Origin: Mikrocytos mackini
Lineage: Eukaryota; Endomyxa; Ascetosporea; Mikrocytida; Mikrocytiidae
Assembly: GCA_030180075.1 (NCBI GenBank)
Contig: JASNJN010000396.1
Span: forward strand, 1 to 21,209
Length of the DNA stretch: 21,209 nt
Direction: 5' to 3'
Position numbers and translations under genes: made by a program. Positions 6,213-21,209 of the stretch are shown in pieces. How positions within the stretch are numbered: the first letter of the stretch is position 1; each line of letters opens with the position of its first letter. The notes under the pieces are model-generated. The model searched no databases, had not been told where the DNA came from, and saw nothing but the letters and a program-made list of their open reading frames with translations.

Positions 6213-7234
6213 TTACTGGAATTCAGGTAAAGAAAATAATTCTCTTAAGACAACAATTAAATTCATCATGGCTGTTGGTCTATGGAATCCGTTATAGCAA
6301 TAACGGAAAACCCATTCAGAACACATCAAATTTAAATGTTCAGCATCTGTCCATTGGTAATTATAGTGCCTTTTTAAGCGCTTCATATTACCAAAGATAC
6401 CTTCGATGTGGTTTGTGTGGGTTCCGTACTAACGAGATGTCTAGAATGGTTGACTTTATGATGATCGAACCCCAAACTAGACAAAATGTCATAAGATTTA
6501 TGACTGTCCGTGTGAACCGTTGTACCCAGTTCAACCCATCGAAAGATAAATGGTAAGATGTGTAAATGACCACGGGAAGGAAGAAACTCCAAGGATCCCT
6601 TTTTCTTTATTATATTGACGACTCCAATTACCCAGACGGTATTACTCGGGCTTGTCCTTCCTTGGTTCCCATGCCGCCGGGTTATGGGAGTCTCGTCGAA
6701 TTGCATCATGATTCCTTCTCCCACAACTCTGGTATTTCTCTTCGATAACCAGAAGAATAACGACTCTCGGAAAAGAGGATATATGTTTCTTACTGATGCA
6801 TCTCCGAGACCAAGACTTTGTTCTACATTAGATTGGACACGCATAGATGCGAAGAAGTTTAGAAGGTAGGGCATCTTACTTGGTTCTACGTGTGATTCCT
6901 CAAATAGGGAGTTCTTAAGAAGTGAATATTTTGCACGGGCGCATCGTCTTTTGTTGCAACGAAAAAACGGCGAGTGGTTGTTCATGTAGTAAATCTTAAT
7001 GAGAACTGTAGAACAACAAGGGCAAGTCTTTGATTTAAGAATTAATCTTATTTCCCTTAAAAATTCTATGAAATCCTTGTATGGAAGGGCGACCAAGAAG
7101 TGTATGTCGCTATAATTTATTTTGTAAGTGCTGTTGGATGTTATTTCCCATTTCTCTAATACACGACTGTAGTGTGTATTGTGGCTATTGAACACTTCGA
7201 AAAGGTTTTCAAGTCTAGTTGAAGGTCGGTTCAT
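6213..7234 (-). pseudogene. Merlin/IS1595-type (ISXO2 family) transposase with one frameshift (copy C)
   Basis: Starts at an ATG at 7234-7232. Residues 71-98 form a zinc ribbon (CPCC, then C93 and C98). The DDE domain follows: QFDETPITRRHG with Asp180, NTVWVIGVVNI, and VHTDSHKSYDIL with Asp243, then VNHSRHLVS near 261-269. Here the frame breaks (about 6410-6433) and 283 codons end at 6383. A neighbouring frame continues the family C-terminus exactly: THTNHIEGIFGNMKRLKRHY, then WTDAEHLNLMCSEWVFRY and FHRPTAMMNL, ending at a TAA at 6215-6213. With one indel it is the youngest of the three copies. The family uses a DDE cut-and-paste mechanism in Merlin elements. Terminal inverted repeats were not found by eye. 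Sequencing error at the indel is a possible alternative to true loss. Confidence 0.88.
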
Positions 7235-8629: not shown

Positions 8630-9301
8630 CGCTGCAGAGTGCAACATGAGCTCAGGATGGAGGCGAAGAGCCCAAGGTTGCAACAACTAGCTCATCAAGG
8701 GCTCCACATTCCTCCCGGCCTTCAAAACTCCCTTAACCCAACCTCTGCCTGGTCCCCTATTAGGAAGATAATAAAGCCAGATGGGGAACCATGTTGGTCT
8801 GTCCTGTCATTAACGCTTTAACATGGGGCCGCAAGGCCCACAATAAAAAGACGGGCCCGGAATCAATTCATGTTTTCCTGGCCACAGGCCCGGTAAACCG
8901 CCCAAAGGGAAGGTGAACCATGAATACCAGTTCTCAACGAGAAGATGGTAGAGCTTTGCGACAACCCCTTGGGTTCATCGCATAGACCTAAAGGTCTCCG
9001 TTTTATTTTACCCTTGGTGAATAAACGGAGTGGTATAACTAGATACCACAGCGACCTGGTAAATAATACCCCAGTCACCTGACCATTCCTTACGCGCCAA
9101 AAACCCCAAGGGGAAGAATAGGCAAAAGTAAGGGGGTTTGATAGGCTGATCTATTAACCCTTTAAGGGTTATCACATGGCCTTAAACGGCTCTGGGGGAA
9201 CCAGGAGTAGGCAAGGGAGATCCAAAGCAAACCGCCAGGTTGAAATAGAATCCATTGGTTTCACAGGGAAGGGCTGAAGTGGCCAAGTGATAGTGCCTTA
9301 A
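8630..9301. other. GC-richer island of unknown origin, ending at the palindrome
   Basis: Base composition changes abruptly from AT-rich to roughly even at about 8630 and the island stops at the TTAA of the palindromic element. The longest open frames are short (8570-8821 plus, 8863-9078 minus) and match no family I know; longer readings hit stops in all six frames. It is likely a fragment of another mobile element, perhaps LTR or leader sequence, truncated or interrupted by the piggyBac-type insertion. On the far side of the palindrome (after 13653) the sequence is AT-rich, so continuity was not seen. Confidence 0.4.
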
Positions 9302-9305
9302 TTAA
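9302..9305. repeat. TTAA target-site duplication, left
   Basis: TTAA directly followed by CCCTTTG. The matching TTAA is at 13650-13653 preceded by CAAAGGG. Duplicated TTAA targets are specific to piggyBac-type integration. Confidence 0.8.
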
Positions 9306-9310
9306 CCCTT

Positions 9311-9471
9311 TGTGTACCCTCTGTATCATATTTGCACTAATCAGAATATCCACTTGTGAGCCTAATGTATCATTTATGCACTATAAATTTATGTATTTGT
9401 GTACCCTTTGTATCAGATTTGCACTAATTTGTAAATTGACTTGTGTACCATTTGTATCAGATATGCACTAA
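9311..9471 (+). repeat. Four 30-bp subterminal repeats, left end
   Basis: Copies start at 9311, 9355, 9398 and 9442, each about 30 bases and built as TGTG(T/A)(A/G)CC, GTATCA, then GCACTAA/T. The period is 43-44 bases, about four turns of DNA, so all copies would face the same side of the helix. The second copy is the most diverged. Arrays like this usually serve as transposase binding sites; that role is inferred. Confidence 0.8.
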
Positions 9472-11054
9472 AGACGCTTCTCATGTTTAAATGTTTTATT
9501 TAAGCGAAATTTTTTGGTTGTTGCAACAACTTTTATTCATATCCAATAGATTTTTATAATTGGTCTACTCGTGCTTATTGACTTTATAAATATGTTGGAA
9601 ATTACTCCAGGTTTAGCATGTTTATATACTTCATCTTTAGTATTCACTCAAATAACATAATTTTTCAACATTTACACTGACAAAATGAATGCTCATACGT
9701 TATTATTTGGATGATATGTTCAAATAACAATAATAAGCATGAACAACATCTTATATAGATAAATTATTTAGATATAATTTTTCCATAATACCTTAATAAA
9801 ATAATTTATTGGCTTATTATGAATAATTACGAATCAAAGATAAACGAACCCATGCGAAATATTTCAAAAAATTATCAAATCATATCGTTTTAGAATGTGC
9901 AAAGTTTATTATTTTAGGAGCTTTAAATTATGTTATACAATTGTTTTGCAAATACCAATTATTTTGATGTCTAATTTTGGCAAATTAATAACATAAATGA
10001 ATATTTTGTATATTGACCAGGTAACTTGACGCTGTGTCCGGCATGGTAGACAGGAGCCTAATAAAACGTGGGGAAAGTGTATTGATGAAGACAATATAAT
10101 TTTATAACAAAAACTAATAAAAAGCCATATCATGAATAGCTAAATGTAATCATCAAATGACCGCTGCAATTTTATTCCCTGGTCTGTTTTTGGTGCTAAG
10201 AAACTAAAACGGGAGACCTGGGACACAACACAAGAAATATATGCCAAAAACCTCAAATCGCCGTTTGAGGGGTAGAAGGATGATCACAACACAATCTGCT
10301 GGAAACAAAACATTTTGGGCACTGTCAACCTTTGGGCCAAACTACCAGAAACGTCAACCATTAGAAGTTCGTACAATCAGAAATATAAGGTGGTAGAATT
10401 ATAGGGATTTTGTAAAAGGGCATCGGAAGTTATGATGAAAATGCGATGTTATCCCGAAGGAATATAAGATAAATGCATAGAAGAGTGTGAAGTTTAACAG
10501 AGTTATTCAGTGATGGAAAAGAAATTTTTATAATTAACTATGCGGTTAGTTTTTCTTATAAAATATTATTTGACATAAATGGGATCATTTTTACAGATGC
10601 CCTTTAAAATACCAATTATATCATTTTGAAAGTTGTTTGGATTTGCCTTACCTTGCACATTGCACAGGGGGATTACACCTTCTTGATAAGTTGTATATCA
10701 TTAAAAGTACAATAATCAATATTAAATTATATGTTCGAAGCTCTTGAACACCGCAAATGTGTTCTATTTGAATTTATAATAATTTTGGGATATGTATTTA
10801 TAGAATAAGACCTCCAAAGATGACCAACCAAGTAAAATTCAATTTATACCAATCTTATTGTAAACCCAAAATTCCAAAGCTTATCTGATGTTAAAATCTA
10901 TTAAAACAACACATATCATTCTCGCCCTTATAAAGGCAAGAGATTTCGTTATGATTTCTTTAAATATATATTTACATTACATGTTCTGATTCAAATGTGA
11001 ATTTTGTTTTAATCTATTGAATAATACATCATTTCGTAATAAATAGGGGCCGGC

Positions 11055-11085
11055 AAATATATGATTTGGTACAAATCATATATTT
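11055..11085. repeat. Perfect hairpin, 14-bp arms with GTA loop
   Basis: AAATATATGATTTG, loop GTA, then CAAATCATATATTT. The same hairpin occurs in the right arm at 11886-11916. Its geometry, 14-bp arms with a 3-base loop, equals that of the unrelated hairpin at 5010-5040. Confidence 0.75.
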
Positions 11086-11457
11086 TCCCAAAATCTTGCA
11101 AAATTTCCACCCGTAATTATATCAAATTTGGGCAATTCATATATTTTATTCTATTTGAAAATGTTAACTATAATGAGATTTCAGTCAAAATCATATATGG
11201 TCATTTATTTCACGATTTTTTATCATATATTTTCCGACCTCTAGTAATAAACTTATAATGAAAATTATACAAAATTAAAATTACTAGTAATTTGATTTTA
11301 TATCTTTATAAAATAATTGTTTTATAAATACCTGAGTTAGTCAAAATGTTTTGTATTGATACCCAGATGCTTTAAATTCATATCCTATTCGATTTTCTAA
11401 AAGTTAAATCATATCTATATTAAATTTCCGACTCTTCTATGGCCGAATGCTTTAAAA

Positions 11458-11513
11458 ATTGTTAAGTTTAACCAACCAATCTAAATTATTCTAACATTAA
11501 ACACAGAACATAT
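11458..11513. other. Unique spacer at the palindrome centre
   Basis: This AT-rich sequence of 56 bases separates the two arms and has no pairing partner. Its presence means the arms could loop out as a cruciform or hairpin with a 56-base loop, and it is what keeps the palindrome from being perfect. Confidence 0.75.
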
Positions 11514-13649
11514 TTTAAAGCATTCGGCCATAGAAGAGTCGGAAATTTAATATAGATATGATTTAACTTTTAGAAAATCGAATAGGATATGAATTTAAAG
11601 CATCTGGGTATCAATACAAAACATTTTGACTAACTCAGGTATTTATAAAACAATTATTTTATAAAGATATAAAATCAAATTACTAGTAATTTTAATTTTG
11701 TATAATTTTCATTATAAGTTTATTACTAGAGGTCGGAAAATATATGATAAAAAATCGTGAAATAAATGACCATATATGATTTTGACTGAAATCTCATTAT
11801 AGTTAACATTTTCAAATAGAATAAAATATATGAATTGCCCAAATTTGATATAATTACGGGTGGAAATTTTGCAAGATTTTGGGAAAATATATGATTTGTA
11901 CCAAATCATATATTTGCCGGCCCCTATTTATTACGAAATGATGTATTATTCAATAGATTAAAACAAAATTCACATTTGAATCAGAACATGTAATGTAAAT
12001 ATATATTTAAAGAAATCATAACGAAATCTCTTGCCTTTATAAGGGCGAGAATGATATGTGTTGTTTTAATAGATTTTAACATCAGACAAGCTTTGGAATT
12101 TTGGGTTTACAATAAGATTGGTATAAATTGAATTTTACTTGGTTGGTCATCTTTGGAGGTCTTATTCTATAAATACATATCCCAAAATTATTATAAATTC
12201 AAATAGAACACATTTGCGGTGTTCAAGAGCTTCGAACATATAATTTAATATTGATCATTGTACTTTTAATGATATACAACTTATCAAGAAGGTGTAATCC
12301 CCCTGTGCAATGTGCAAGGTAAGGCAAATCCAAACAACTTTCAAAATGATATAATTGGTATTTTAAAGGGCATCTGTAAAAATTATCCCATTTATGTCAA
12401 ATAATATTTTATAAGAAAAACTAACCGCATAGTTAATTATAAAAATTTCTTTTCCATCACTGAATAACTCTGTTAAACTTCACACTCCTCTATTCCTTCC
12501 GGATAACATCGCATTTTCATCATAACTTCCGATGCCCTTTTACAAAATCCCTATAATTCTATCACTTTATATTTCTGATTGTACGAACTTCTAATGGTTG
12601 ACGTTCCTGGTAGTTTGGCCCAACGGTTGACAGTGCCCAAAATGTTTTGTTTCCAGCAGATTGTGTTGTGATCATCCTTCTACCCCTCAAACGGCGATTT
12701 GAGGTTTTTGGCATATATTTCTTGTGTTGTGTCCCAGGTCTCCCGTTTTAGTTTCTTAGCACCAAAAACAGACCAGGGAATAAAATTGCAGCGGTCATTT
12801 GATGATTACATTTAGCTATTCATGATATGGCTTTTTATTAGTTTTTGTTATAAAATTATATTGTCTTCATCAATACACTTTTCCCAAGTTTTATTAGGCT
12901 CCTGTCTATCATGCCGGACACAGCGTCAAGTTACCTGGTCAATATACAAAATATTCATTTATGTTGTTAATTTGCCAAAATTAGACATCAAAATAATTGG
13001 TATTTGCAAAACAATTGTATAACATAATTTAAAGCTCCTAAAATAATAAACTTTGCACATTCTAAAACGATATGATTTGATAATTTTTTGAAACATTTCG
13101 CATGGTTTCGTTTATCTTTGATTCGTAATTATTCATAATAAGCCAATAAATTATTTTATTATGGTATTATGGAAAAATTATATCTAAATAATTTATCTAT
13201 ATAAGATGTTGTTCATGCTTATTATTGTTATTTGAACATATCATCCAAATAATAACGTATGAGCATTCATTTTGTCAGTGTAAATGTTGAAAAATTGTGT
13301 TATTTGAGTGAATACTAAAGATGGAGTATATAAACATGCTAAACCTGGGGTAATTTCCAACATATTTATAAAGTCAATAAGCACGAGTAGACCAATTATA
13401 AAAATCTATTGGATATGAATAAAAGTTGTTGCAACAACCAAAAAATTTCGCTTAAATAAAACATTTAAACATGAGAAGCGTCTTTAGTGCATATCTGATA
13501 CAAATGGTACACAAGTCAATTTACAAATTAGTGCAAATCTGATACAAAGGGTACACAAATACATAAATTTATAGTGCATAAATGATACATTAGGCTCACA
13601 AGTGGATATTCTGATTAGTGCAAATATGATACAGAGGGTACACAAAGGG
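11514..13649 (-). repeat. Right arm of the giant inverted repeat
   Basis: Reverse complement of 9306-11457. Examples of differences from the left arm are single substitutions at the positions pairing with about 9590, 9630, 9650, 10370 and 10395, and a deletion of about 15 bases. The innermost 500 bases show one or no mismatch by eye. The frame at 12822-13022 mirrors 9933-10133 with a few changed residues, and both are too short and AT-rich to be taken as genes. Confidence 0.85.
13484..13644 (-). repeat. Four 30-bp subterminal repeats, right end
   Basis: Mirror image of the left block, with no mismatch seen over the terminal 180 bases. The same TGTGTACC / GTATCA / GCACTAA composition and 43-44 base spacing are kept. 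Confidence 0.8.
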
Positions 13650-13653
13650 TTAA
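13650..13653. repeat. TTAA target-site duplication, right
   Basis: CAAAGGG followed by TTAA, matching the left boundary at 9302-9305. Confidence 0.8.
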
Positions 13654-13691
13654 ATAGAAAATACAAAAAAAAATATATTCAATATTCATAA

Positions 13692-15093
13692 TTATTTTTT
13701 TTGATTCATATTATTATATTTAATTATTAGGTAACTTTCGACATTTTCATAATTAAAATTCCTATCATCCGCCAACAATTTGTTTAAAAGACTAAAACTT
13801 CTCTCTACAGCTATAGACGTTGGCTGTGCATTTTGTAATAAATTATACTCCTCTGGGCTCAGTTCCATATCATCCATAGTCATTATTTTAACTATATCAC
13901 TTTGTTTTAATCTTTTAATCTTTTAATAATATATGATTTTATATTTAAAGGATCATCTTTGAAATTCAGTTTAAAAATTTCCTCATATGCTCTTTTAATT
14001 GTATGGTTAGTCGATTCCAATTTATCTATTTGTTCCAAAATAATCAGGTAATTATTTGTAATTTCAATTAATTCAAAATATAAACCCGGATCGTTTACAA
14101 TATTTTTTGCATTATCTACTAAAATACCGTCTTCTTCGAAATCATTTACTATTTTCTTAATTTAACTAAATTTTTACTATAATATTTGCATGCAGACAGC
14201 CATGAACCCCATCTAGTAAGTATGGGTTCCGGGGGAAAACCGATAGATGAAAATTTTCTTCTTCTTGTTCCGTTTCGAACGACACATGATTTAATAGAAG
14301 CGATTAATTTGTTTACTAGCTTGTAATTTGCTGCTATGTTTATTACACAATTATGCATTAAATGTGCTAAACAAGTAACTCCTTTTAATTTCGGGTAGAA
14401 TATTTTTAAGTTTCTTAAAGCAGCTGTATTATATCGCGCCGCATCTGTAAGTGAAAGTAAAAAATTTTCGCCTTTAATATTAAACTCTGTTAGAAAATTA
14501 TTAATAGAAGTTTTTATACTTTTAGAGTTGCAACTATATTCAGTATATATAGTTTTCGCTAGATAAAATAGGTTTGAATGTTCTAAATCTGAAACTAAAA
14601 TATTTATATACTTAGTTTTGTTAATCTCTGTTTCGTCTATCATCAAACATACTTTTTTGTCTTTTATCTTTTCTTTTATTTTGTCTTTTTCTAGTTTGGC
14701 TATGTTCGGAATTTTTCGGCGTATAGAACTTTCTGAAGGACGCCACCCCATGTGCTTATTTAAGAAATTCGAAAATTTGGTATTTCTAAGTTTTTTAAGA
14801 GGGATTTCTGCAGCCAGAAATACTGAGGCAAGTTCTTCTTCTTCGTCGTGTTTTGATGGTTCAATAAATGTTTGGTGGCTTTCAGACGATGCGCTGTTGT
14901 TTGCTTCACGCATAGAATGTGTTTTGGACTCTCTATGTCTCTGTGCGTTCTGATCTTTATTGCAAGAAACATTCTTCTTACAAAGAGTACAGTATAGTTG
15001 TTTCTTGTGGTCAAGTGTGAATTCAGATGGGTAGCGAGTAACGTATGAACCGGATCTGTTGAGGAATGAGTTGTTGTTTTAAGTAGCAGGCAT
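13692..15093 (-). pseudogene. hAT-family transposase, frameshifted, with N-terminal zinc finger
   Basis: An ATG at 15093-15091 starts M-P-A-T, then an in-frame TAA, then an open frame with a zinc finger YCTLCKKNVSC...HRESKTH (C2H2 of BED/CGGBP1 type). The next domain, LASVFLAAEIPLKKLRNTKF, is the segment shared by CGGBP1-like hAT proteins. The catalytic region holds LMIDETEINKTKYI and LTDAARYNTAALRN, and ILTRWGSWLSACKYY near 14190. A shift at about 14150 leads to IVNDFEEDGILVDNAKNI; a second shift, in an 8-bp ATTAAAAG direct repeat at 13905-13925, leads to the C-terminal dimerisation motif PTSIAVERSFSLLNKLLADD ending at 13692. The full length would be about 460 residues. It ends 39 bases from the palindromic element. 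hAT terminal repeats were not found by eye. One stop and two shifts mean it is inactive. Confidence 0.85.
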
Positions 15094-16572: not shown

Positions 16573-17583
16573 ATGTCTACGACACGACTAGCAAAAGGAA
16601 TCATTAAAACACTACTTAAAATTCCAGCGATGGATTTGGAAACACAGCCCACTGAAAAGATCCCTTCCATGATTGGCAAGACTGCAGCAAAGAAGATAAA
16701 GCTTGAAAGCGGGGTTTTATCAGACAAGGTAATTTTCGACCTGTTAGACGAAGTCGAGATTATATTAATAGGAGAGGAAAACGTATTGCAGGTAAAACCA
16801 CCTTGTGTTGTCGTTGGAGACATCCACGGCCAGTTCTCCGACCTCTTAGATTTATTTGGAAGAACGGGACTATTGTCAGCTTTAAACACCAGTGAGGAAT
16901 TGAAAGAACAGTTCCTGTTTCTGGGGGATTATGTTGATAGAGGTCCTCGTTCTCTAGAAACCATTTGCTTCCTCTTCGCACTTAAATTACTTTACCCCGA
17001 TTCTATGATGCTGTTGAGAGGAAACCACGAATGCTGGTACGTCAACAAAACGTACGGGTTCTACGACGAGGTAAGATTAAGATACTCGCAGAAATTGTGG
17101 AGGAGGTTTACGAATGTGTTTCAGTACCTTCCCATTGCAGCGATTATCGATGAAAGAATATTCTGCTGTCACGGGGGAATATCGCCCAGTTTAGTGGAAA
17201 CCAGAGGCGGACTAAAGGCGATAGAAAGAATACCCAGGCCGATAGAGATTCCATCCAAGGGACTTTTGTGCGACCTGCTTTGGTCCGACCCGGATGCCAA
17301 CGTCGACGAGTTCGGGCCCAATTCGCGGGGCACTTCTTATGTTTTTGGAAAGAAAGCGCTAAACAGTTTCTTGGACCGATATGATTTCGACTTGATTTGT
17401 AGAGGACATCAAGTTATTCAAGACGGGTATGAATTCTTTCATGACAAGAAACTTGTCACTGTGTTCAGTGCGCCCAATTATTGTAACTTTGGAAACACAG
17501 CAGCTTATATGACTGTTGATGAAAATCTCGTCTGTGCGTTCAATTTATTGAAAAAGAGAAAGAATGAGAATGAATTCATATAA
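16573..17583 (+). CDS. PP1-like serine/threonine protein phosphatase catalytic subunit
   Basis: 336 residues, no intron. It removes phosphate from Ser/Thr using two metal ions. All signature motifs are present: GDIHG at 82-86, GDYVDRG at 118-124, RGNHE at 149-153, HGG at 200-202 and SAPNYC at 299-304. LCDLLWSDPD and DGYEFF are typical of PP1 rather than PP2A. Oddities: an insertion of about eight residues (NTSEELKEQ) before FLFLGDYVDRG, RGH at 277-279 where PP1 has RAH, and a shortened NFGNTAAYM loop after SAPNYC where PP1 has a GEFDN-type loop. There is also an N-terminal extension of about 45 residues. It is therefore a divergent member, perhaps a second PP1 in the genome. It lies 166 bases upstream of the SF3B2-like gene on the same strand. 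Confidence 0.93.
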   Translation: MSTTRLAKGIIKTLLKIPAMDLETQPTEKIPSMIGKTAAKKIKLESGVLSDKVIFDLLDEVEIILIGEENVLQVKPPCVVVGDIHGQFSDLLDLFGRTGLLSALNTSEELKEQFLFLGDYVDRGPRSLETICFLFALKLLYPDSMMLLRGNHECWYVNKTYGFYDEVRLRYSQKLWRRFTNVFQYLPIAAIIDERIFCCHGGISPSLVETRGGLKAIERIPRPIEIPSKGLLCDLLWSDPDANVDEFGPNSRGTSYVFGKKALNSFLDRYDFDLICRGHQVIQDGYEFFHDKKLVTVFSAPNYCNFGNTAAYMTVDENLVCAFNLLKKRKNENEFI

Positions 17584-17749: not shown

Positions 17750-18592
17750 ATGACTTTTTATATTCCTGGACGAAACAAAGAGAACTCGAAAAAGTCTGTT
17801 ATATTAGATCTAAAGCTAGCATCTTTTGACCCTTCTCTGGTCGATATAGAAGATGCGAATTCTCCTTGTCCAATACAGAACATAAAGATTAAATCTTCGC
17901 GATACAGCACGCCATTTCCCTCTGCCTGGAGATTAAATATCAAAACCAAGCTCAATTCCGGCAGATACGACAGAAAGGAATATGTGTTGCCGCCGAACGT
18001 AGCTGCAACGGGAATACAACAATTGAAGAAAATCTCACTGAGTTTAGAGGAACTAAACAAAATAAAACGTGCCAAGATTCAAACATTAAACCCTATAATG
18101 GGGCGCATTAACATCGATTATAAGATACTTCACGACGCCTTTTTCCAGTTTGAATATCTCCCCAAATTTAGTGGTTTTGGCGAAATAGGTGGGAACTCTG
18201 ATACGAAGACTAAAAATAATGCAACATATCCTTCTAAAATATCAGACACATTGAAACGGGCTTTGAATCAGAGTGGGCCCTTAAAACCTATGCCTTGGAT
18301 AAACCGAATGCAAAAACTTGGGACACCACCGGCCTTTATAGATCCCGAGATACCCGGTGTTACGGCACCAATACCTCTTGGAGCTGATACTAAAGACTGG
18401 GGGAGTTTGCCTGTTGATGAATTTGGAAGACATAGTTTGTTTTTGAAAGGAAATAAAAGATGGGATTTGTTAGAGAAGAAGGGGGTAGACATTGAACAAG
18501 AAAAAATCATACAGAAGGAATTAGATGGATTGTTCAACTTCGATATTATTGAATGGATAGATACAAAAGAAGCTTTCGAAGATTACTTATAA
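17750..18592 (+). CDS. SF3B2: SF3B2-like splicing factor (SF3b145/Cus1), compact form
   Basis: 280 residues, no intron. SF3B2 is a subunit of SF3b in U2 snRNP and helps hold the branch-site region in the spliceosome. The DUF382 domain spans about 45-165: TPFPSAWRLNIKTKLNSGRY, ELPP-like VLPPNVAATGIQQLKK and GRINIDYKILHDAFFQFEYL. The PSP domain follows at about 163-212: ISDTLKRALNQSGPLKPMPW, then RMQKLGTPPAF and IPGVTAPIP. It ends with KDWGSLPVDEFGRH, the counterpart of WGKPPVDETG in animals. Human SF3B2 is about 895 residues; only the conserved core is kept here, as expected in a reduced genome. The start is the second ATG because the one at 17743 is out of frame. The stop is followed within 60 bases by a piggyBac-type end. 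Confidence 0.9.
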   Translation: MTFYIPGRNKENSKKSVILDLKLASFDPSLVDIEDANSPCPIQNIKIKSSRYSTPFPSAWRLNIKTKLNSGRYDRKEYVLPPNVAATGIQQLKKISLSLEELNKIKRAKIQTLNPIMGRINIDYKILHDAFFQFEYLPKFSGFGEIGGNSDTKTKNNATYPSKISDTLKRALNQSGPLKPMPWINRMQKLGTPPAFIDPEIPGVTAPIPLGADTKDWGSLPVDEFGRHSLFLKGNKRWDLLEKKGVDIEQEKIIQKELDGLFNFDIIEWIDTKEAFEDYL

Positions 18593-18647
18593 ATAGGGAA
18601 ACTAAAAGTCTATAAGTGCAATTGGATTATGTGAATATAATTATTAA

Positions 18648-18792
18648 CCCTTTGCGTACTCTCTGTATCATATTTGCACTAATCCGAATATCCACTTGTG
18701 AACCTAATGTATCATTTATGCACTATAAATTTATGTATTTGTGTACCCTTTGTATCAGATTTGCACTAATTTTTAAATTGACTTGTGTACCA
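18648..18792 (+). mobile_element. Severed left end of the same piggyBac-type family
   Basis: TTAA (18644-18647) followed by CCCTTTGCGTACTC and then the same subterminal repeats as at 9306-9450, with a few substitutions. The match breaks inside the fourth repeat at about 18792, where unrelated, LTR-like sequence begins. It sits 56 bases after the SF3B2 stop codon, so it may supply the 3' untranslated region or terminator. Confidence 0.82.
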
Positions 18793-18795
18793 TAT

Positions 18796-19017
18796 TGCCG
18801 TGCCTTCGGCTATCTTGCGGCCTGTTTGCCGACTGAAAAGGTTTATTGTTGTAGTTTGGGTTGTTCCGCATATTTACCGAAAATTTAAATTTTCTAAAAT
18901 ATATATATTGTTATTTATAATTACTTACATTTCCCATAATTGGATGTTGGCTTCAAAAAATCAGTTAGCCCTTTTTAGTTAGACCTACAAAACCCTGTGG
19001 GAAAAAGGTTTCTAACA
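18796..19017 (-). repeat. Probable LTR of a Ty3/gypsy element
   Basis: Lies directly downstream (minus strand) of the gypsy polyprotein end. It can be drawn from TGTTAGAAACC at 19017 to CA at 18796, 222 bases, ending where piggyBac homology starts. It has a TATA-like ATATATAT stretch and an AATAAA. No clear polypurine tract precedes the assumed start and the second LTR is not in the window, so limits are provisional. Confidence 0.4.
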
Positions 19018-19054
19018 GGCATGGACATCTTTGAAGCCGTTGGATTCCAGTTGA

Positions 19055-19342
19055 CTATTCAACTGCTGGGATCCGACAGTCTGCCTCTTCTCCCTGCCAT
19101 AATGTAACTCTTCTAAAAGGCAGAATCACTTCGTTCCCGTTCTCTCTAATTGTAATAGTTCCCAAACTTGAATCCTGTTGTATTACTTCAAAAGGCCCTC
19201 GATATTNATGNNTGGTTCGGTTTGGTGCTGCAGTATTAATTTTTGGGAAATGGCCCCTTAAAATAAAAATTCCGTACTTTAGGACATATTTAACGGGGAA
19301 TTGCTTGGGGAAAATTCTCGAAATCTTGAAATTTTTTGACAT
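19055..19342 (-). pseudogene. Ty3/gypsy polyprotein C-terminus (integrase end), fragment
   Basis: The frame of 95 codons ends at 19055. HFPKINTAAPNRT followed by YRGPFEVIQQDSSLGTITI and EVILPFRRVTLWQGEE is the typical tail of gypsy integrase, where a small beta-barrel (GPFxVI...) is followed by a loosely conserved end. Three undetermined bases (19207, 19211, 19212) fall in the reading and may hide a further indel. Nothing upstream (above 19342) can be read as the integrase core, so the element is truncated or heavily decayed. ATG at the start of the open frame is probably fortuitous. Confidence 0.7.
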
Positions 19343-20661: not shown

Positions 20662-20916
20662 TCATCCCTTTCTTTTTAAGAAACGGTTTATGATCGATGG
20701 TTTACGTACACCACCTTTAAACAAATCCAGAACCTCCTTCTTAATTTCTTCATTTTGATTCACATGGAAATCTATTGTTTGTGCTCCCCGGATAGTAACT
20801 ATATATTCATCTTCCTTGTTAAGTGTGGAACAAGTAACCTCTATTCTTCGTTTACGGCTGGAATCTTGTTTCCCACACTTTCTTCCATTTCCCACACTTT
20901 CTTCCAATTCCCACAC
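20662..20916 (-). pseudogene. Possible transposase N-terminal fragment
   Basis: An open frame of 84 codons without a near ATG. Past the minisatellite-encoded start it reads RKRRIEVTCSTLNKEDEYIV, then DFHVNQNEEIKKEVLDLFKG and KPSIINRFLKRKG. The last part is the kind of helical linker that follows the DNA-binding finger in MULE/FLYWCH-type transposases. No catalytic domain follows; the frame closes at once. The assignment is tentative. Confidence 0.3.
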
Positions 20917-20953
20917 TTTCTTCCGATTCCCACACTATCTTCCATATCCCACG
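20872..20953. repeat. 19-bp tandem repeat, about 4.3 copies
   Basis: CCCACACTTTCTTCC units start at 20872, 20891, 20910, 20929 and 20948 (partial). The last two copies are the most diverged. A 19-base period is not a multiple of three, so it is not a repeat selected at protein level although a minus-strand frame runs through part of it. Confidence 0.85.
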
Positions 20954-21209
20954 ATCGTCCATTTTAGCATGATTGCTGGCGGTTTTATGGTGTTTCACAC
21001 ATCCTAACCGATGTATGACGATATTTCCCAGAGACTGAGACTATTTTGATCTGTTAATACGAAAATCCACACTATATTCTTGAATATTACAAGCAATTTT
21101 CCAATTTTGAAAATTTGAAAATTTAAAGCAATTAAGTCATATAAACGTGTAAAATCGACTTCCCAGCTTTCATAGCCTAATATATTTGTAATAATTTTCA
21201 AAAATTATC
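20954..21209. other. AT-rich end of window, no gene seen
   Basis: Only short, overlapping, unrecognised frames. Confidence 0.5.

What the first reader, a model, noticed from the sequence alone, without database searches (positions are those of the whole stretch)
9302..13653. Giant 4.3-kb palindrome carrying piggyBac-type ends and TTAA duplication
Seen: two arms of about 2.15 kb in inverted orientation around a 56-base spacer, bounded by TTAA-CCC and GGG-TTAA. Known: TTAA duplication and CCC-type ends are diagnostic of piggyBac elements; typical non-autonomous piggyBac derivatives have short terminal repeats, not repeats running the full length. Inference: a fold-back piggyBac derivative that may move as a near-perfect hairpin, or a fusion of two head-to-head copies.
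Basis: partly seen in the sequence, partly recalled or inferred. Interest (0 to 1): 0.85.

Follow-up and report, generated by a model that had tools for sequence, protein, structure and literature searches.

The report
Two transposon copies misjoined head-to-head
The long mirror-image stretch is really in the sequence, but its two sides do not fit one insertion site, so it is most likely two copies of one jumping element joined nose to nose, probably by the assembly, rather than a new kind of mobile palindrome.

Summary
In detail: 9302-13653 is a near-perfect inverted repeat (arms about 2.15 kb, 98%, exact spacer 55 nt) bounded by TTAA-CCC and GGG-TTAA. The ends are piggyBac-like: 18 terminal bases equal the end of C360, which encodes a piggyBac transposase start. 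The claim of one mobile palindrome fails its main test. The left end sits at a TTAA inside a high-copy repeat; 34 of 39 other scored copies run through that TTAA, and 0 of 39 continue into the palindrome's right flank. The flanks are therefore not two halves of one target. The arms are two lineages: the right arm shares 7 derived substitutions and a 15-base deletion with C82, another contig. The centre occurs nowhere else in the held contigs, and the spacer matches two relatives that run straight on. The assembly (Mikrocytos mackini, by one identical protein) is Illumina-only, and 6 of 50 other stretches hold long inverted duplications. Best reading: two insertions falsely joined at a fold-back. 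A real rearrangement stays possible; no reads were seen.

The parts
9302..13653 (.). whole inverted repeat, TTAACCC...GGGTTAA
9302..11457 (+). left arm (lineage L)
   Evidence: 19 substitutions and one 15-base indel from the right arm
11458..11512 (.). spacer by exact pairing; 11464-11508 is homologous (38 of 45) to straight-through copies on C162 and C309
11513..13653 (-). right arm (lineage R, closest to C82)
9302..9319 (+). 18 terminal bases identical to the end of C360, which encodes the start of a PF13843 transposase (17 to C273)
9310..9471 (+). four copies of a 31-nt unit at 43-44 nt spacing near the end (mirrored in the right arm)
   Evidence: family D1 (units at 9310, 9354, 9397, 9441)
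10462..10476 (+). 15 bases present in the left arm and, with two differences, in C162; missing in the right arm and C82
11044..11243 (.). nested MITE of about 200 bp with 8-base duplication GTAATAAA (11036-11043, 11244-11251)
   Evidence: read; over 30 other places match this stretch at 78-88% (40 of 188 candidates scored); 'hAT-like' is recalled from the 8-base duplication and end form
11727..11926 (.). mirror copy of the nested MITE in the right arm
8700..9301 (+). left flank: part of a high-copy repeat that continues past the TTAA in other copies
13654..13951 (+). right flank: single-copy in the held contigs apart from two 54-base matches at 83%; not the continuation of the left repeat
18644..18793 (+). 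150-base stub of the same element end, broken off against other sequence

Best explanation
Two separate insertions of one non-autonomous piggyBac-type element appear joined head to head inside the element. Locus X is the left flank plus the left arm; locus Y is the right flank plus the right arm. The join is a fold-back: a strand reading inward along the element reached the end of the spacer, paired with an earlier short reverse-complementary stretch and was continued backwards. In this Illumina-only overlap assembly the likeliest place for that is the library or the assembler: a fold-back read bridged two contigs that both ended in the same repeat. Shown: the mirror structure, the TTAA ends, the two arm lineages, the flank mismatch, the straight-through relatives. 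Inferred: that X and Y are separate loci and that the join happened outside the cell.
For: Flanks: with the left flank plus the repeat's continuation as query, 34 of 39 non-self scored copies run past the TTAA (40 of 93 candidates scored; one of the 34, C318, supplied the continuation letters; the query favours copies that continue). With the left flank plus the window's right flank, 0 of 39 non-self scored copies go more than 3 bases past the TTAA (40 of 92 candidates scored). C386, C318 and C11 were read directly. Lineages: of 17 substitutions between the arms covered by C82, C82 agrees with R at 16; with C162 as outgroup 7 are derived in R and C82, 9 in L, 1 in R alone; R and C82 share the 15-base deletion. 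Centre: query 11410-11560 found only itself, 1 of 1 candidate scored. Spacer: 38 of 45 identical to C162 and C309, which run straight on (score 31, best of 1000 shuffles 21). Method: TruSeq MiSeq/HiSeq reads, MIRA, 49.7 Mb, N50 4547 (PMC10245619, Methods read; passages); a later re-assembly gave 15.4 Mb, ascribed to repeat handling (PMC11069148 passages). Elsewhere: inverted duplications of at least 120 bp at 95% or more in 6 of 50 non-window stretches (61 loci merged, 196,298 bases, 48 contigs), direct ones in 2 of 50; L020 and L046 have Ns at or beside the fold, L030 and L044 lie at contig starts. Read artefacts of this geometry, including same-strand hairpins: PMC8458033 passages, for FFPE samples.
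Against: No reads could be examined, so the join was not tested directly. This spacer holds no N, and Ns are scattered elsewhere in the held loci too, so Ns at two folds are weak evidence. The exact outer 304 and inner 574 bases of the arms would also follow from gene conversion in a real palindrome. The six other inverted duplications come from stretches chosen for repeats; L028 (flanked by MITEs) and L031 (608-base spacer) could be real element structures. C82 ends inside the arm and could itself be half of a similar palindrome. A deletion or further insertion at the right edge could also have removed the repeat's continuation. The paper's Results speak of low DNA yield, its Methods of about 4 micrograms and mention no amplification, so chimeras from whole-genome amplification are not indicated.
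Confidence: 0.68

Rival explanations
1. A real head-to-head fusion in the parasite: breaks in two copies of the element at different loci were joined through a fold-back or microhomology, a translocation or inversion with both breakpoints in the element.
For: Explains the flank mismatch and the two arm lineages. DNA repair genes are reported as over-represented among gene losses in M. mackini and two relatives (PMC11069148 passage).
Against: Needs a rearrangement exactly where short reads are weakest; other folds at contig starts or beside Ns suggest a technical cause.
Confidence: 0.19
2. A palindromic piggyBac derivative that transposed as a unit, with the right flank changed afterwards by deletion, insertion or rearrangement, and possibly with C82 as a second copy.
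For: Exact TTAA ends on both sides; R and C82 could be corresponding arms of two copies of an older palindrome.
Against: No other copy of the centre in the held contigs; the target repeat does not resume on the right; C82 shows only one arm before its contig ends.
Confidence: 0.08
3. A simple fold-back duplication of one arm in place.
For: Asymmetric unique spacer and a short near-reverse-complementary stretch at the turn.
Against: Would carry the left flank into the mirror image and make the arms each other's closest relatives; neither holds.
Confidence: 0.03

Closest known systems
piggyBac superfamily, non-autonomous derivatives
   Same: TTAA next to CCC; 18 terminal bases shared with a copy that has a PF13843 transposase start in this genome; the same boundary beside five different flanking sequences
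   Different: the far end of the element was not identified; the full-length arms belong to the join, not to the element
Foldback-type elements with long inverted repeats and tandem subunits (recalled)
   Same: long inverted arms, four tandem 31-nt units near each end
   Different: no recurring centre found, flanks do not match one target
Artefact chimeric reads from short reverse-complementary pairing (PMC8458033, passages)
   Same: inverted duplication around a short unique loop, short near-reverse-complementary stretch at the turn
   Different: described there for formalin-fixed samples; 4.3 kb here needs an assembler to extend both sides

Membership tests
piggyBac element (family of the arms) | insertion at TTAA with the element starting CCC | tested here: met
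   TTAACCC beside five different flanking sequences: window 9302, window 13653 (reverse), window 18644, C65, C82; for window 9302 uninterrupted copies of the target repeat carry the TTAA
piggyBac element (family of the arms) | ends shared with an element encoding a DDE_Tnp_1_7 transposase | tested here: met
   18 terminal bases shared with C360, which has a PF13843 start; 66 PF13843 matches in the held genome, 0 of 14 control genomes
piggyBac element (family of the arms) | own transposase or its remains | tested here: not met
   tblastn of the longest open frame of each of 22 piggyBac loci: no match to the arm at E up to 1, none to four relatives below 0.42; compatible with a non-autonomous derivative
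piggyBac element (the palindrome as one unit) | both flanks are the halves of one TTAA target | tested here: not met
   34 of 39 scored copies of the left repeat run through the TTAA, 0 of 39 reach the right flank; a later change at the right edge is not excluded
piggyBac element (the palindrome as one unit) | several copies with the same centre | tested here: not met
   query 11410-11560 found only the window; the held contigs are 13.6 Mb of a published 49.7 Mb
Foldback element | mobile unit with long inverted arms | tested here: not met
   the two tests above

The most novel reading that the evidence does not exclude
Fold-back duplication is a real and frequent process in this parasite genome; it gives one-ended transposon fragments a second end, making new two-ended piggyBac-type elements, of which the window palindrome and C82 are two.
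Probability: 0.08. Interest if true: 0.7.

Novelty: not a real feature. Interest (0 to 1): 0.17.

Why it matters
It warns that inverted duplications in this short-read assembly should not be taken for genome structure without reads, and it gives a cheap test for any TTAA-flanked element: compare both flanks with uninterrupted copies of the target repeat. If the palindromes proved real, they would show how fragments of transposons regain mobility.

Tried and rejected
A single-molecule fold-back as the origin of both full arms was rejected because the right arm is closer to C82 than to the left arm. Remains of a piggyBac transposase in the arms were sought and not found. An empty site was sought with the right flank alone (5 of 5 candidates scored) and with both flanks joined (40 of 92 scored): none seen. 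The other half of locus X (element end followed by the repeat's continuation) was sought by pattern: one match with one mismatch, on C273, which carries the C360-type end; the other listed matches have two mismatches, and the reversed control pattern also gave 10 matches against 23, so nothing rests on it. My first guess that the host is a microsporidian was wrong: the protein at 17750-18589 is identical to transcript GAHX01001343.1, and GAHX01 is listed as the M. mackini transcriptome. Counting inverted duplications over the whole genome was not possible. For L020, the open frame before the fold reads like a retroelement protease (my reading; a Pfam search of its last 59 residues gave nothing). 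Paper searches for palindromic or fold-back piggyBac elements, (5 papers; none; 2), and on piggyBac in microsporidia (15 of 23 listed), were seen as listings only; none of the titles or abstract openings shown reports such an element. Read in part: PMC8458033, PMC11069148 and PMC9998036 (passages), PMC10245619 (outline, passages, sections 6 and 10).

Full report
Setting. The window is contig C330 of a 13.6-Mb set of 733 contigs. The protein encoded at 17750-18589 is 100% identical to EukProt record GAHX01001343.1, and GAHX01 is listed as the Mikrocytos mackini transcriptome in PMC9998036 (passage); the host is named on this one protein. The published M. mackini genome is a 49.7-Mb MIRA assembly of Illumina MiSeq and HiSeq reads, 16,018 contigs, N50 4547 bp (PMC10245619). 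The contig lengths I saw are all above 10 kb, so the held set looks like its longer contigs (inference). A later re-assembly was 15.4 Mb, and its authors put the difference down to the handling of repeats (PMC11069148, passage). No long reads are described in the Methods.

Observation. The inverted repeat is in the sequence and the coordinates are exact: TTAA 9302-9305 then CCC, GGG 13647-13649 then TTAA 13650-13653. The arms pair over about 2.15 kb. They differ by 19 substitutions, all from 9606 to 10883, and a 15-base indel at 10462-10476; the outer 304 and the inner 574 bases pair exactly; the exact spacer is 55 nt.

The element. The first 18 bases equal the end of C360, where the start of a piggyBac-type transposase (PF13843) follows. 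The held genome has 66 PF13843 matches; none of the 14 control genomes has one. The boundary TTAACCC stands beside five different flanking sequences: the two window ends, the stub at 18644, C65 and C82. Each arm has four 31-nt subterminal units and a nested MITE with an 8-base duplication (read). No transposase remains were found in the arm. So the arms belong to a piggyBac-type element that has inserted more than once and shows no gene of its own. Its far end was not identified.

Is the palindrome one mobile unit? Three results say no. First, the flanks. The left flank is a repeat: 43 matches, with 40 of 138 candidates scored. Copies on C386 and C318 read straight through the TTAA, as does C11 with a changed TTAA. 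A query of the left flank plus the repeat's continuation (letters from C318) was matched beyond the TTAA by 34 of 39 non-self scored copies; the other 5 stop at 9281, 20 bases before the TTAA, and in one of these, C549, other sequence begins there. This query favours copies that continue. A query of the left flank plus the window's right flank was followed by 0 of 39 non-self scored copies for more than 3 bases past the TTAA. The right flank is single-copy apart from two 54-base matches. So the element's left end lies inside that repeat, and the sequence on its right is not the repeat's other half. Second, ancestry. C82, on another contig with another flank, agrees with the right arm at 16 of 17 sites and shares its 15-base deletion; with C162 as outgroup, 7 of the 17 are derived in R and C82, 9 in L, 1 in R alone. 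Third, the centre was found nowhere else in the held contigs, and the spacer is homologous, 38 of 45, to C162 and C309, which run straight on and share about 1.6 kb more.

What made it. At the turning point the straight-through copies carry a stretch resembling the reverse complement of the arm's inner end, 8 of 10 bases by eye, the geometry of a strand folding back on itself; a match so short could be chance. A fold-back can happen in a cell or in a library; artefact chimeras from short reverse-complementary pairing, with an excess of same-strand pairs that the authors think may come from hairpins, are described in PMC8458033 for fixed samples (passages). I favour the technical cause. Among 50 other stretches (61 loci merged, 196,298 bases, 48 contigs), 6 hold inverted duplications of at least 120 bp at 95% or more; 2 hold direct ones, both among the same six, and that of L046 looks like a by-product of its fold. 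L020 and L046 have Ns at or beside the fold and L030 and L044 lie at contig starts. These stretches were picked for repeats, L028 and L031 may be real structures, and Ns occur elsewhere too, so neither the rate nor the Ns are proof. A contig entering the element from X and one entering it from Y, bridged by one fold-back read, would give what is seen: two different flanks, two arm lineages, exact element ends on both sides and an identical inner part.

What remains open. No reads were available. A real head-to-head rearrangement would look the same. A real mobile palindrome would in addition need a later change at the right edge and, to explain C82, a C82 that turns beyond its contig end; neither is excluded, both are unneeded.

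Noticed in passing
window 18644-18793; C556:8524-8820 (L036 3525-3821): The stub of the element end breaks at 18793 (arm position 153 counted from 9299); C556 has arm 151-269 beside sequence 97% like window 18901-19078: probably the two sides of a retroelement insertion into such a copy (inference).
   Followed up: partly
C102 (L046 3037-4044), C535 (L030 1-757), C355 (L044 1-1911), C662 (L020 2917-3212): Other near-perfect inverted duplications, two at contig starts, two with Ns at or beside the fold; L046 reads A, reversed A, A again.
   Followed up: partly
window 11044-11243 and over 30 other places: A high-copy MITE of about 200 bp with TAGGGG(C/T)CGG-type ends and an 8-base duplication, mostly about 80% alike.
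   Followed up: partly
C273:14124 and C360:11235: Two copies, 99% alike over 766 bases, of a piggyBac element whose open frame stops at about 170 residues; the C273 end is followed by sequence resembling the continuation of the window's left-flank repeat.
   Followed up: partly
window 6383-7234 (-): ISXO2-like (DDE_Tnp_IS1595) transposase fragment.
   Followed up: no
window 14149-14913 (-): Weak DUF659 match below the cut-off, perhaps a hAT-like remnant near the palindrome; 13952-14250 is 95% alike on C711 and C422.
   Followed up: no
window 16573-17583 (+) and 17750-18592 (+): A calcineurin-like phosphoesterase and a DUF382/PSP protein (recalled as SF3b145-like); they look like host genes.
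   Followed up: no
window 20870-20964: Tandem 19-nt repeat, four or five units of the form TTCCCACACTTTCTTCC plus two bases.
   Followed up: no
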